Shown: in pieces, positions 1 through 3,336 of the stretch | Numbering within the stretch: the stretch's first letter is position 1 | How the letters are laid out: each line of letters opens with the position of its first letter | Assembly: GCA_016873715.1 (NCBI GenBank) | Contig: VGWF01000041.1 | Coordinates: forward strand, 1-35,001 | DNA length: 35,001 bases | Reading direction: 5' to 3' | DNA from: Lentisphaerota bacterium | Lineage (GTDB): Bacteria > Verrucomicrobiota > Kiritimatiellia > PWTM01 | Made by a program: the position numbers and the translations under genes | Notes under the pieces: generated by a model | Seen by the model: only the letters and a program-made list of their open reading frames with translations | What the model was told of the DNA's origin: nothing | The model's database searches: none

Positions 1-112
1 CCCCTCGTCCCTCCTCCCTTTTCCTCCCCTCGACCCTCGTCCCTCGTCTTCCTCCCCTCGCCCCTCGACCCTCGTCCCTCGTCCTCCCCTCGCCCCTCGC
101 CCCCCGCCCCTT
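1..112. repeat. 7-bp-period C-rich satellite
   Basis: The segment is a run of heptamers of the form CCCTCGN, with N = T, A or C. In-register units include 2-8, 27-33, 34-40, 41-47, 55-61, 62-68, 69-75, 76-82, 87-93 and 94-100, broken by short TCCT-type interruptions. The array may start before the window. No coding frame in it looks real. It resembles the short tandem heptamer repeats known from other bacterial lineages, and a different heptamer array occurs near 25.9 kb. Confidence 0.85.
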
Positions 113-200
113 TCCCGTTTGACACCCCATTCCGCAGCGGCATACCCTCCAAACGCGCGCGCCGGGGAGGCCGCGGACGCAGGGGGACGAACCGATGCTG

Positions 201-531
201 CGGGACGGACGGGACCGTCGGGCCGCGGATCCAAAGCGATTCCGCGGAATCGCCCTTAGTCTATCTCCACAACGTCCCGTGCTTGCTGCACCTGCCGGTT
301 CGAGACACCCGGCCGGGCTGCAATCCCGGAGAGGAACGCCTCGATTTCCGTCCGCCCACGATCGCGGCGCCTCCGGCCCGGATTCCGCGCGAAGAACCGC
401 CGTACACGCGCCACGCAGTATGGGATCGCCACCTCTTTCGCCCCCTCCTCCCGGAGCTCCGTCACGTACCCCTCCGGCCACCGGGGATCGTCGTTCTCCG
501 GCGCTGCCACCCGCCGCCCATCGTGACGCAT
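201..531 (-). pseudogene. Integron-type tyrosine recombinase, N-terminal remnant
   Basis: An ATG at 531 opens a 91-codon minus-strand frame that reads like the N-terminal SAM-like core-binding domain of integron integrases. It has a tryptophan followed by a helix, the pattern VARVRRFFARNPGRRRRD, then IEAFLSGIAARPGVSN and RQVQQARD. A TAA at 256-258 stops it. Past the stop, in the same frame, the residues FRGIALDPRPD still resemble the family for about 15 codons, after which similarity is lost. The catalytic domain with the R-H-R-Y residues is absent, so the protein cannot recombine DNA. The gene points away from the low-GC genes that begin at 675, the usual geometry of an integrase beside its cassettes. 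The family call rests on motif recognition; a general phage-type integrase is the alternative. Confidence 0.65.
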
Positions 532-674
532 ATCACGCCTCCTCGAATACTGTGCTATACGTCAGCGATTCGTGTAACTCACGTATTTGCAGGTCCAACA
601 TATTAGCAATCGGCGGAGAAGCGGGCGAAACCCCGTGCTATTTGTGACGGCCAATACTATGTTCGGTCACAATT
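532..674. other. Possible attI/cassette promoter region
   Basis: This is the 143-bp gap between the integrase remnant and the first low-GC gene. It is much more AT-rich than the rest of the window. A GTTCGGT core-like heptamer sits at 661-667, just upstream of the next ATG, where an attI or cassette junction would be expected. The core departs from the GTTRRRY consensus at one base and no convincing -35/-10 pair was found, so the role is inferred from position only. Confidence 0.3.
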
Positions 675-1415
675 ATGAATGCTGAAACCAACAAGACGGA
701 CTACGCCGTTAGCATTGCCAAGGGAATCATCGGTGCTGCTCCGATCGTCGGGCCGCTCGTCGCCGAGATCATCGGGAACATTATCCCGAATCAGAGAATT
801 GACCGGCTCACCAAGTACGTGCAAGACCTCAATGCCGCAGTTGCTGATCTCGACCGGGCGAGCATGGAGACGAAGATGCTCGAACCCGCGTTCGTTGACC
901 TCCTCGAAGACAGCTTCCTGGCTGCCGCAAGGGCTTTGACCGAGGAAAGACGCCAGCAGATCGCCTCATTGGTGAAGAATAGCCTCGCCAATCAGGAGAT
1001 TGCTGCGGCTCAAGCCAAACTCCTTCTGCAACTGCTCGGGGAACTCAGCGATCCAGAGATCATCGTGCTTCAGTTCTACGCGAAAATTACATCGCCAGAC
1101 CGAGATGCGTACTTGGAGAAACACAAGGACATTATTCAGGGCTCACACGCCTACCTCGGGTCATCTCAAGAGGAACTCGACCAAGCTGCTCTTGATTCGA
1201 CACGAAAGGCGCATCTTGAGCGCCTAGAGTTGATTCGGCCGAACTTTCGCTCGCCACGTCGCGGCGAATTGCCGGAGTTCGACGACAAGACGGGAATGAT
1301 GAAGGTCAGCTACCACAGCATCACATGGTTGGGACGACTTCTGCTGCGGTTCATTGACCTGGATGATGGAATGGAGAAGAATGACGACCGAACCACGCCT
1401 CCGACCGTACAGTGA
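675..1415 (+). CDS. Glycine-rich hydrophobic N-terminus protein of unknown function
   Basis: A 246-residue protein whose function I cannot assign. Residues about 13-40 form a glycine-spaced hydrophobic segment (GIIGAAPIVGPLVAEIIG), then an NQRIDRL helix start. A long charged, mostly helical region follows to about residue 190, with a polar tail containing a short hydrophobic patch (WLGRLLLRFI). The N-terminus resembles widespread uncharacterised bacterial proteins with a glycine-zipper-like segment that could insert in or associate with a membrane. No Shine-Dalgarno sequence is visible before the ATG, which sits 7 bp after a possible cassette junction. Base composition is clearly below that of the flanking genes, a sign of acquisition. 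It is followed after 59 bp, including two perfect palindromes, by a TIR-like membrane protein gene on the same strand, suggesting the two work together. Confidence 0.7.
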   Translation: MNAETNKTDYAVSIAKGIIGAAPIVGPLVAEIIGNIIPNQRIDRLTKYVQDLNAAVADLDRASMETKMLEPAFVDLLEDSFLAAARALTEERRQQIASLVKNSLANQEIAAAQAKLLLQLLGELSDPEIIVLQFYAKITSPDRDAYLEKHKDIIQGSHAYLGSSQEELDQAALDSTRKAHLERLELIRPNFRSPRRGELPEFDDKTGMMKVSYHSITWLGRLLLRFIDLDDGMEKNDDRTTPPTVQ

Positions 1416-1456
1416 ACCCGCGGCGGGTTCACTGCCGGTCAAGGCGAACGTTCGCC
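1412..1456. repeat. Two perfect palindromes between the low-GC genes
   Basis: The first, 1412-1432, has arms GTGAACCCG and CGGGTTCAC around CGG and overlaps the stop codon of the upstream gene. The second, 1443-1456, is the 14-bp palindrome GGCGAACGTTCGCC. No T-run follows either. They could be an attenuating hairpin pair, a protein-binding site or a degenerate cassette junction; the sequence alone does not decide. Confidence 0.6.
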
Positions 1457-1474
1457 CACTGAAAGGACAAACCC

Positions 1475-2755
1475 GTGTCTTCCGAGTTCTTTAGGCCCGT
1501 CACCATTCTCGTGCTCACGCCGCTGTGCATCGGCCCGTTCGCACTCTTGAGCCAGTGCATCGTAAGTCCCAGGCTGGCCTCAATCCTACGCCGTCCTCTA
1601 CCGTTGATAAGCACGCTTGTCGCTGCCGCTGCGGCAATACTCGGACTGGCGAAATCGTCAGATCTCCTTCTGCTGACTATCGTCAGCTTGTTTGCAGCGA
1701 CAGGAACTTTTCTCTTCTTTGTCCTCGACCGCTGTACTGACGAGCAATTCCAATGGTGGGCGAATTGGGCGACTCTGCTTGGTATCGCGTCGCTGATCAT
1801 TGTCGTTCAGACCTCTGGCGGCACAGCACAGTTTCTTCAAGGACTTCAAAGAGACGTAGATACTCTCACCGCCTCACAGGGCGATATATCCCGTTTGTGT
1901 TTCGCGGGCGCACTCGGCGCGCTACTCATCACCTTTGCCGTCATAGAGACTCCGCTCATCGCTAAATGCATTATTCTCTCGCGCCACTGGCCGATGCGCG
2001 AGCACTTGCGGTGGAATGTGCTTCCGAACCTCCACGTCTGGATTCTGGCATGCATCGCATGCACTATCGTCGCTCTGCCAACGCCTCAGAACGTACAACC
2101 GCGCATACATGCTTTCTACGAAGCTCTTCTTCTGACTTGGTGCCTCTTCTGGCTCCCGGTGGCCCTGACGCCGCCACAGATCCTCTTTCTTCACAGCTTC
2201 GATGAACGCAACTACCGCGCGCGCCGAATCCTCACCGCGATTCTGCCTGGCCACGTTGTGTCGCTATTCCCGGGCGCAACAACCGGAGCGGGATGGGTGA
2301 TGTGTGCGCTGCGGTCGATAGTCGGACAAGGTTGCCGTATTGCCTCTTCTCATTCCTGGCAACCCATGGTGCGCGTGTTCATGAAGCGCGCCGAGGTGAT
2401 CGTGATGGATCTGTCCTTTTCAAGGGCTGGGCTTCTCACAGAACTGCGGTTCCTTGCTTCTGACGAGGAACTGACGGACAAGACGATGTTCGTCAGCCAG
2501 AATGAAATGGAAGCGCGTCGCACGCTGAGTGATCTTGTCAAAGTCTGTAGCGCCGCGAATGGTCAACGGCTTCTTTCACGCCCGTGTTTCGGGATCGACG
2601 ACATTTGGCAGCCCGACCCCATTTCTTTCGTTCTTCCTTCTCGCATGGGGCTCACCGGTGCCAGACTCGATGTTAACGTCACACACGGAATGTATCCGGC
2701 CTCTAGATTTCTGCTGTACCTGGCAATTGCAGGGGTACTCATGGTGTTGGTGTAG
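1475..2755 (+). CDS. Multi-pass membrane protein with TIR-like cytosolic domain
   Basis: A 426-residue protein starting at GTG, with AAAGGA about 8 bp upstream. The N-terminal half has about seven hydrophobic segments, near residues 8-28, 43-59, 62-84, 98-112, 141-162, 186-201 and 215-232. A soluble domain at 237-405 follows, then a last hydrophobic helix at 408-426. The soluble part opens with ILFLHSFDE. It later has AEVIVMDLS followed by SRAGLLTELRFL (about 307-327), the beta-strand and helix pattern seen in membrane-bound TIR/SEFIR-like proteins of bacteria. Glu323 lies roughly where the catalytic Glu of NAD-cleaving TIR domains falls; that is inference. Low GC and pairing with the gene at 675 suggest transfer. 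Possible roles are nucleotide-triggered defence or signalling; a purely structural role cannot be excluded. Confidence 0.7.
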   Translation: MSSEFFRPVTILVLTPLCIGPFALLSQCIVSPRLASILRRPLPLISTLVAAAAAILGLAKSSDLLLLTIVSLFAATGTFLFFVLDRCTDEQFQWWANWATLLGIASLIIVVQTSGGTAQFLQGLQRDVDTLTASQGDISRLCFAGALGALLITFAVIETPLIAKCIILSRHWPMREHLRWNVLPNLHVWILACIACTIVALPTPQNVQPRIHAFYEALLLTWCLFWLPVALTPPQILFLHSFDERNYRARRILTAILPGHVVSLFPGATTGAGWVMCALRSIVGQGCRIASSHSWQPMVRVFMKRAEVIVMDLSFSRAGLLTELRFLASDEELTDKTMFVSQNEMEARRTLSDLVKVCSAANGQRLLSRPCFGIDDIWQPDPISFVLPSRMGLTGARLDVNVTHGMYPASRFLLYLAIAGVLMVLV

Positions 2756-3336
2756 TTTCATGTAGACTCGAATACTCAACACTGAGGGGCTGAGCGCCTA
2801 AGGGAAACAGGAACCGACATGGATGGGTGACGACGACGCGATACACACTCCCGAAGAACGCCGGCACATTCCGCGTGCAGGAAGCGATGGGAGGGAACTA
2901 CATCGTCACTAACGACAAGATGGCCGGGACTTGAAGAAAGAGAAATGGGCGAACAAGGCGTTTCGGGTTATCGGCGACCCGGGGTCGCCTCAACCTGAAC
3001 GCTGACGTTCGGCGCTTCTTCGTGTTTCCGCTCCAAACCAACATCAGGATACCATGACCTCATCCATGATCGGCCTGCTCCTCATCGCTGCCACGGGTTG
3101 CTGCTGCGCTTGGGCCGCTGATACCACACCTTGACAAGACCGCGCGCGCCCGGAACTGGTGCTTTCGTCGAAGGAGTTCCGGGTGAAGCCGCCCAGCACT
3201 GCCTGGAGTCTTTGCGAGGTCGCTTTGCTGAAGGGGTCGCGTTTATAGTGCAGGTGCTGCGTGTACGGCGGGCGGTTGGGCCTAGCGTTCCGGCCGGCCT
3301 CCGGCCCCGTGGAGTGCGGGATAGCGGAGAGATACC
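2756..3336. other. Gene debris without an intact gene
   Basis: No complete gene is seen in this 581-bp stretch. Short plus-strand frames with protein-like composition occur, for example one reading TLPKNAGTFRVQEAMGG and ending near 2934, and one reading KWANKAFRVIGDPGS and ending at 3003. A 26-codon secretion-signal-like frame lies at 3054-3134. Hairpins occur near 2978-2996 (GGCGACC/GGTCGCC arms) and 2995-3012 (GAACG/CGTTC arms ending in GTTCGGC). The mixture looks like decayed cassettes or deletion scars between the low-GC genes and the esterase cluster. Confidence 0.45.
3054..3134 (+). pseudogene. Isolated signal peptide fragment
   Basis: A 26-codon frame starts at ATG 3054 and stops at TGA 3132-3134. 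It reads as a complete secretion signal: short N-region, hydrophobic core (MIGLLLIAATGCCCAW) and an AWA-AD type cleavage site. No mature protein follows. It is best explained as the leftover 5' end of a deleted secreted-protein gene; a functional micropeptide is possible but unsupported. Confidence 0.35.

What the first reader, a model, noticed from the sequence alone, without database searches (positions are those of the whole stretch)
675..2755. Low-GC gene pair with a seven-helix TIR-like membrane protein: candidate new defence system
Seen: two co-directional genes of distinctly lower GC than the window. One is a glycine-zipper-like hydrophobic protein. The other has about seven membrane helices, a soluble domain with ILFLHSFDE and AEVIVMDLS...AGLLTELRFL patterns, and a final helix. 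Known: membrane-bound TIR-like domains and membrane-disrupting partners occur in bacterial immunity, and integron cassettes have recently been shown to carry defence genes. Inferred: the pair is a captured effector module, with the TIR-like part sensing or cleaving a nucleotide and the small protein acting at the membrane.
Basis: partly seen in the sequence, partly recalled or inferred. Interest (0 to 1): 0.72.

Follow-up and report, generated by a model that had tools for sequence, protein, structure and literature searches.

The report
Two integron cassettes, possible phage defence
The two genes are real, but they are two separately mobile integron cassettes next to the remains of an integrase gene, one encoding a relative of a known phage-suicide protein and the other a membrane protein of a widespread unnamed family, so they probably sit together through gene capture and not as one two-part defence system.

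Summary
Two co-directional, low-GC genes lie at 675-1415 and 1475-2755, and the second encodes about seven membrane helices, an alpha/beta domain and a final helix. The region is an integron: a truncated intI (216-531, minus strand), attI, cassette 1 (662-1450), attC1, cassette 2 (1451-3007), attC2. Positions 216-666 are 93% identical to intI plus attI of a second integron in the same genome, and identity stops at the GTT crossover. Each cassette's first seven bases are the perfect complement of its own R'' box, so each gene has its own recombination site. Gene 1 homologues occur in five other loci, none with a gene 2 relative. Gene 1 is a divergent relative of Abi-alpha: a 37%-identical homologue passes Pfam PF14337. 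Gene 2 is a divergent member of a widespread unnamed membrane family with an LYLRSFxDD...W...GLxWE domain. That family's profile resembles TIR weakly but specifically; fold comparison found no TIR match. My best reading is independent capture of two cassettes, cassette 1 probably an abortive-infection type defence gene in the well-expressed first position, and cassette 2 a possible membrane effector. The defence role is inferred, not shown.

The parts
216..531 (-). truncated integron integrase gene intI (about 105 N-terminal codons only; no catalytic domain)
   Evidence: 93% DNA identity over 216-666 with G000:C200:5136-5586, which lies in a full 505-aa intI (TIGR02249, 421 bits over cut-off 265); weak TIGR02249 match of the remnant itself, E 0.077
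532..667 (+). attI region with core G^TTCGGT at 661-667 (crossover after 661)
   Evidence: 96% identity to C200 attI; identity ends at 666, just after GTTCGG, where different cassettes follow
662..1450 (+). gene cassette 1 (789 bp)
   Evidence: begins TTCGGT after the attI crossover; its R'' box ACCGAAC (1387-1393) is the exact complement of GTTCGGT (661-667)
675..1415 (+). gene 1, 246 aa, Abi-alpha-related protein with one hydrophobic helix
   Evidence: homologues; 37%-identical homologue L085 passes PF14337 (31.2 bits, cut-off 29)
1387..1456 (+). attC1; contains the stop codon of gene 1; R''=ACCGAAC, R'=GTTCGCC
   Evidence: folds as R stem, L stem and hairpin; DNA -26.6 kcal/mol, z -6.2, no shuffle as good
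1451..3007 (+). gene cassette 2 (1557 bp)
   Evidence: begins GTTCGCC (1450-1456), exact complement of its own R'' GGCGAAC (2948-2954)
1475..2755 (+). gene 2, 426 aa, polytopic membrane protein of the LYLRSF family
   Evidence: family profile 16.6-17.1 bits, single-sequence E 2-3e-7
2174..2503 (+). LYLRSF-family alpha/beta (TIR-like) domain of gene 2, residues 234-343, with conserved Glu in GLLTEL
   Evidence: AF2 model of the family representative pLDDT 84.2
2948..3013 (+). attC2; R''=GGCGAAC, R'=GTTCGGC
   Evidence: folds in the same R/L layout as attC1; DNA -21.3 kcal/mol, z -4.1, 1 of 200 shuffles as good

Best explanation
This is the start of an integron array whose integrase gene has been truncated: intI remnant, attI, cassette 1 (gene 1), attC1, cassette 2 (gene 2), attC2. 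Shown by sequence: an integrase captured two independent single-gene cassettes. Inferred: cassette 1, in the first and normally best expressed position, makes an Abi-alpha-related membrane-associated protein that works like Abi-alpha, damaging the membrane or causing early lysis so that a phage-infected cell dies before releasing phage. Inferred more weakly: cassette 2 makes a membrane-anchored protein whose TIR-like alpha/beta domain binds or cleaves a nucleotide when triggered, acting on its own. With its integrase truncated, the array is now fixed unless the intact integrase of the second integron (contig C200) acts on it.
For: Integron: full intI elsewhere in the genome (421 bits); window 216-666 93% identical to that intI and attI, with identity ending at GTTCGG; two attC-shaped hairpins of identical layout; both cassettes with 7/7 complementary ends. 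Low GC fits acquired DNA. Gene 1: homologues at 30-38% identity in G263, G195, Marinobacter, Methylobacterium and an Acinetobacter record; the Acinetobacter one passes Abi_alpha; in G263 an Abi_alpha gene (E 5e-16) lies next to the gene 1 homologue with an attC-like hairpin between them. Abi-alpha is experimentally an abortive-infection system causing premature lysis (PMC6356687). Integron cassettes are a known reservoir of phage defence: 16 of 179 in V. cholerae, 9 of 57 tested in V. parahaemolyticus (PMC12409362). Gene 2: family membership, invariant Glu aligned with the TIR Glu column, confident alpha/beta model of the family.
Against: Gene 1 itself has no Abi_alpha match, so the link goes through homologues. 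No PADLOC model hits either protein. LYLRSF-family neighbourhoods are mostly housekeeping: 4 PADLOC models hit one protein each of 73 neighbours, and one of those (QatD) may be ordinary TatD. Fold search gives no TIR. There is no phenotype, and most integron cassettes have no known defence role.
Confidence: 0.55

Rival explanations
1. The pair is one functional two-gene defence system (a TIR-like membrane sensor and a membrane-active partner) that was assembled by, or now travels within, the integron.
For: Adjacent, same strand, 59 bp apart, similar GC; both membrane-associated.
Against: Each gene has its own attC and matching cassette end. No other locus has both. Gene 1 homologues occur alone in five loci.
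Confidence: 0.08
2. The two cassettes are not defence genes but cell-envelope or stress-response functions, like the META-domain cassette of the second integron.
For: The first cassette at the other attI encodes a META-domain lipoprotein (PF03724). LYLRSF-family neighbours are mostly housekeeping. Most cassettes have unknown roles (PMC12409362).
Against: Gene 1's link to Abi-alpha and the neighbouring Abi_alpha gene in G263.
Confidence: 0.3
3. Gene 2's soluble domain is not TIR-like but another Rossmann-like nucleotide-binding domain that senses a ligand in the membrane protein (this concerns gene 2 only and can hold together with the best explanation for gene 1).
For: Foldseek top hits are Rossmann-like enzymes (PylC, CoaB, LOG, ThiF) with E 2e-3 to 4e-2 and TM (query) at most 0.41; no TIR in the top 50. 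Only 1 of 40 family members touches a TIR Pfam model, E 0.19.
Against: Profile comparison prefers TIR_2 (P 2.2e-4) to another flavodoxin-like family (P 0.1), in register with the TIR glutamate column.
Confidence: 0.4

Closest known systems
Integron gene-cassette arrays, including cassette-borne phage defence genes in Vibrio (reviewed in PMC12409362)
   Same: intI divergent from attI and cassettes; single-gene cassettes, each with an attC; low-GC cassettes in a higher-GC genome; R''/R' complementarity
   Different: only two cassettes; the local integrase is truncated; no phage phenotype is known for these cassettes
Abi-alpha (DUF4393, PF14337), abortive infection protein of Enterococcus faecalis prophage 6 (PMC6356687)
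   Same: a 37%-identical homologue of gene 1 passes the Pfam cut-off; similar length (246 against 272 aa); single-gene system
   Different: gene 1 itself is below the cut-off; its family has an N-terminal Gly/Pro-rich hydrophobic segment and a PNQR-type motif; it is carried by an integron, not a prophage
TIR_2 (PF13676) and ThsB-like TIR domains
   Same: alternating beta-alpha order; W...V..LM..A.LIV...GLxWE aligns with the TIR block ending in the conserved Glu
   Different: no Pfam TIR match over cut-off, no Foldseek TIR match; embedded between membrane helices; LYLRSFxDD and GRPGE motifs of its own
Unnamed LYLRSF membrane family (loci L010-L015, L019-L068)
   Same: several N-terminal membrane helices, alpha/beta domain with LYLRSFxDD, W and WE motifs, often a final helix
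   Different: gene 2 is divergent: HSFDE in place of RSFDD, TE in place of WE, GRPGE loop altered

Membership tests
Integron cassette array | integron integrase gene next to attI | tested here: met
   93% identity of 216-666 to a full intI plus attI in the same genome; local copy truncated
Integron cassette array | each cassette ends in an attC of conserved shape with R''/R' boxes | tested here: met
   two hairpins of identical layout, z -6.2 and -4.1
Integron cassette array | cassette 5' end complementary to its own R'' | tested here: met
   7/7 for both cassettes
Integron cassette array | actual recombination of the cassettes by IntI | not testable with these tools
   different cassettes at two copies of one attI are indirect evidence only
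Abi-alpha (PF14337) | profile match over the curated cut-off | tested here: not met
   gene 1 has no match up to E 1; homologue L085 passes at 31.2 against 29 bits, Marinobacter homologue E 0.007. So gene 1 is called a relative, not a member
Abi-alpha (PF14337) | abortive infection with premature lysis | not testable with these tools
   known only for E. faecalis Abi-alpha (PMC6356687)
LYLRSF membrane family | profile match of the soluble domain above chance | tested here: met
   16.6-17.1 bits against a best shuffle of 7.0; hhalign P 1.2e-4 for gene 2 alone
LYLRSF membrane family | membrane helices flanking the domain | tested here: met
   hydropathy of gene 2 and many family members
TIR domain | sequence profile match | tested here: inconclusive
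   family against TIR_2 Prob 45%, P 2.2e-4; no single-sequence match; gene 2 alone against TIR_2 P 0.27
TIR domain | TIR fold | tested here: inconclusive
   confident alpha/beta model of the family representative (pLDDT 84.2, pTM 0.81), but no TIR among the top 50 Foldseek hits; the model of gene 2 itself is unusable (pLDDT 39.7)
TIR domain | catalytic glutamate and NAD cleavage | not testable with these tools
   a Glu invariant in the alignments aligns with the TIR Glu column; activity unknown

The most novel reading that the evidence does not exclude
Gene 2 represents a widespread, uncharacterised family of membrane-embedded TIR-like effectors, found from Actinomycetota to Verrucomicrobia, which here has been captured as a single mobile integron cassette and acts alone in phage defence.
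Probability: 0.2. Interest if true: 0.65.

Novelty: new member of a known kind. Interest (0 to 1): 0.42.

Why it matters
If cassette 1 is an Abi-alpha-type suicide gene, it extends the 'integrons as defence libraries' idea beyond Vibrio and mobile integrons to an environmental bacterial class in which 26 of 57 sampled genomes carry an integron integrase, and it links a proven abortive-infection family to cassettes. The analysis also outlines a broad unnamed membrane family with a TIR-like domain. It is also a caution: neighbouring genes in a low-GC island need not be an operon; here the recombination sites show them to be separate units.

Tried and rejected
(1) Direct relatives of gene 2: none in genome contigs, viral contigs, plasmids or 289 genomes of the phylum by single-sequence search; a consensus recalled from memory was used as a lead to find the family, which then tested positive by profile. 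(2) AlphaFold2 of gene 2 alone: useless (pLDDT 39.7), so a family representative was folded instead. (3) PDB profile hits to designed TIM barrels rejected as repeat artefacts: each repeat is insignificant on its own. (4) Rfam has nothing in the window. (5) Plasmid hits H4-H12 at E 2-8 not followed beyond annotation; treated as chance. (6) Glycine-zipper pore for gene 1: only one hydrophobic segment; DLP_helical and Vesi_VP2 matches are below cut-off. (7) Cassette status of the gene 1 homologue in G263: the upstream attC-like site folds (z -2.9), the downstream one does not (z +0.9), so this stays suggestive. (8) No attC-like site was seen near the G195 homologue.

Full report
Observation. Both genes are at the stated coordinates and are clearly lower in GC and GC3 than the 32 kb downstream. 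Gene 2 encodes a polytopic membrane protein with a soluble domain and a final helix, as described. Gene 1 has only one hydrophobic, Gly/Pro-rich segment before a mainly polar helical body.

What the region is. The surroundings decide the case. The minus-strand ORF at 256-531 is the N-terminal end of an integron integrase: window 216-666 is 93% identical over 451 bp to contig C200 of the same genome, where a full 505-aa intI (TIGR02249, 421 bits, cut-off 265) is followed by attI. The identity stops at 666, just after GTTCGG, the place where an integrase joins attI to a cassette; beyond it C200 carries a META-domain lipoprotein cassette while the window carries gene 1. Two sites fold as single strands into the attC shape (R stem, 2/3-nt spacer, L stem, hairpin): 1387-1456, z -6.2, and 2948-3013, z -4.1. 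The first spans the stop codon of gene 1. Each cassette's first bases (GTTCGGT at 661; GTTCGCC at 1450) are the exact complement of its own R'' box (ACCGAAC at 1387; GGCGAAC at 2948). With GTT/AAC fixed, the four free positions matching in both has a chance of roughly 1 in 65,000 (my arithmetic). So there are two complete single-gene cassettes, 662-1450 and 1451-3007.

Consequence for the 'pair'. Gene 1 homologues (30-38% identity) were found in G263, G195, a Marinobacter plasmid, a Methylobacterium plasmid and an Acinetobacter record, plus a fragment in Halomonas. None has a gene 2-family neighbour within the DNA examined, and none of about 55 gene 2-family loci has a gene 1 neighbour. The genes are most simply adjacent because an integrase put them there.

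Gene 1. It has no Abi_alpha match of its own, but its 37%-identical Acinetobacter homologue passes Abi_alpha PF14337 at 31.2 bits against a cut-off of 29, and the Marinobacter one reaches E 0.007. In G263 the homologue lies beside a clear Abi_alpha gene (E 5e-16) with an attC-like hairpin between them. Abi-alpha of E. faecalis prophage 6 is an experimentally shown abortive-infection protein that causes premature lysis, and its authors consider membrane effects possible (PMC6356687). I infer, and have not shown, that gene 1 acts in a similar way.

Gene 2. No close relatives were found in the collections searched. A consensus recalled from memory led to a real, widespread family with the pattern LYLRSFxDD, GPVVAxGRPGE, W...V..LM..A.LIV, GLxWE between membrane helices. 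A profile of 59 members built without gene 2 scores gene 2 16.6-17.1 bits (single-sequence E 2-3e-7), against a best of 7.0 among 2000 shuffles; hhalign of gene 2 alone against the family gives P 1.2e-4. An AlphaFold2 model of a family representative is confident (pLDDT 84.2, pTM 0.81) and alternates beta and alpha. Against a TIR_2 profile built from 28 TIR domains of the phylum the family gives P 2.2e-4 over 54 columns, with its WE glutamate on the TIR glutamate column; the best of 20 shuffles is 0.059 and a response-regulator profile gives 0.1. Foldseek, however, finds only weak generic Rossmann-like matches and no TIR in the top 50. 'TIR-like' is therefore a reasonable lead, not a membership. 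Neighbours of the family are mostly housekeeping, with a few conflict-type domains (SLATT_1 once, TPR-S twice among 73 proteins).

Context. Chromosomal and mobile integrons are now known to store phage-defence cassettes (review PMC12409362). That makes defence a fair prior for cassettes of this size and especially for cassette 1, whose wider family has a proven Abi member. The placement in first position fits expression from an integron promoter, but no convincing promoter was identified.

Verdict. Integron architecture: about 0.95. Gene 1 an Abi-alpha relative: about 0.8. Phage defence by cassette 1: about 0.5. Gene 2 in the LYLRSF family: about 0.9. TIR-like in mechanism: about 0.4. The two acting as one system: below 0.1.

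Noticed in passing
L077 3934-5451 (G000:C200): The genome's intact integron integrase is 505 aa with a duplicated N-terminal core-binding domain: residues about 39-94 match the second copy at 32% identity, E 8e-8. Many integrases in the class have open frames of 420-580 aa, so an extended N-terminus may be common there.
   Followed up: partly
class of the window's genome: 26 of 57 sampled genomes of the class have an integron integrase over the curated cut-off, several with two to four copies: an integron-rich class.
   Followed up: no
window 1-120: C/T-rich low-complexity repeat (CCCTCGTCC units) at the contig start, also present at the start of contig C200 (about 86% over 49 bp): possible assembly break or repeat-mediated truncation of intI.
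   Followed up: no
window 2758-2947: About 190 bp between gene 2 and attC2 with no convincing ORF; a frame reading VTTTRYTLPKNAGTFRVQEAMGGNYIVTNDKMAGT may be the end of a lost gene.
   Followed up: no
L085 (CAKLQH020000009.1): Record named 'Acinetobacter phage MD-2021a' carries ordinary bacterial genes (prpB, prpC, acnA, fabB) around the gene 1 homologue: apparently mislabelled chromosomal DNA.
   Followed up: no
L002 453-1421 and 5980-6678 (plasmid pMAQU01): The Marinobacter gene 1 homologue lies 4.5 kb from a SIR2-family gene in a run of co-directional hypothetical genes bounded by transposases: a possible defence island.
   Followed up: no
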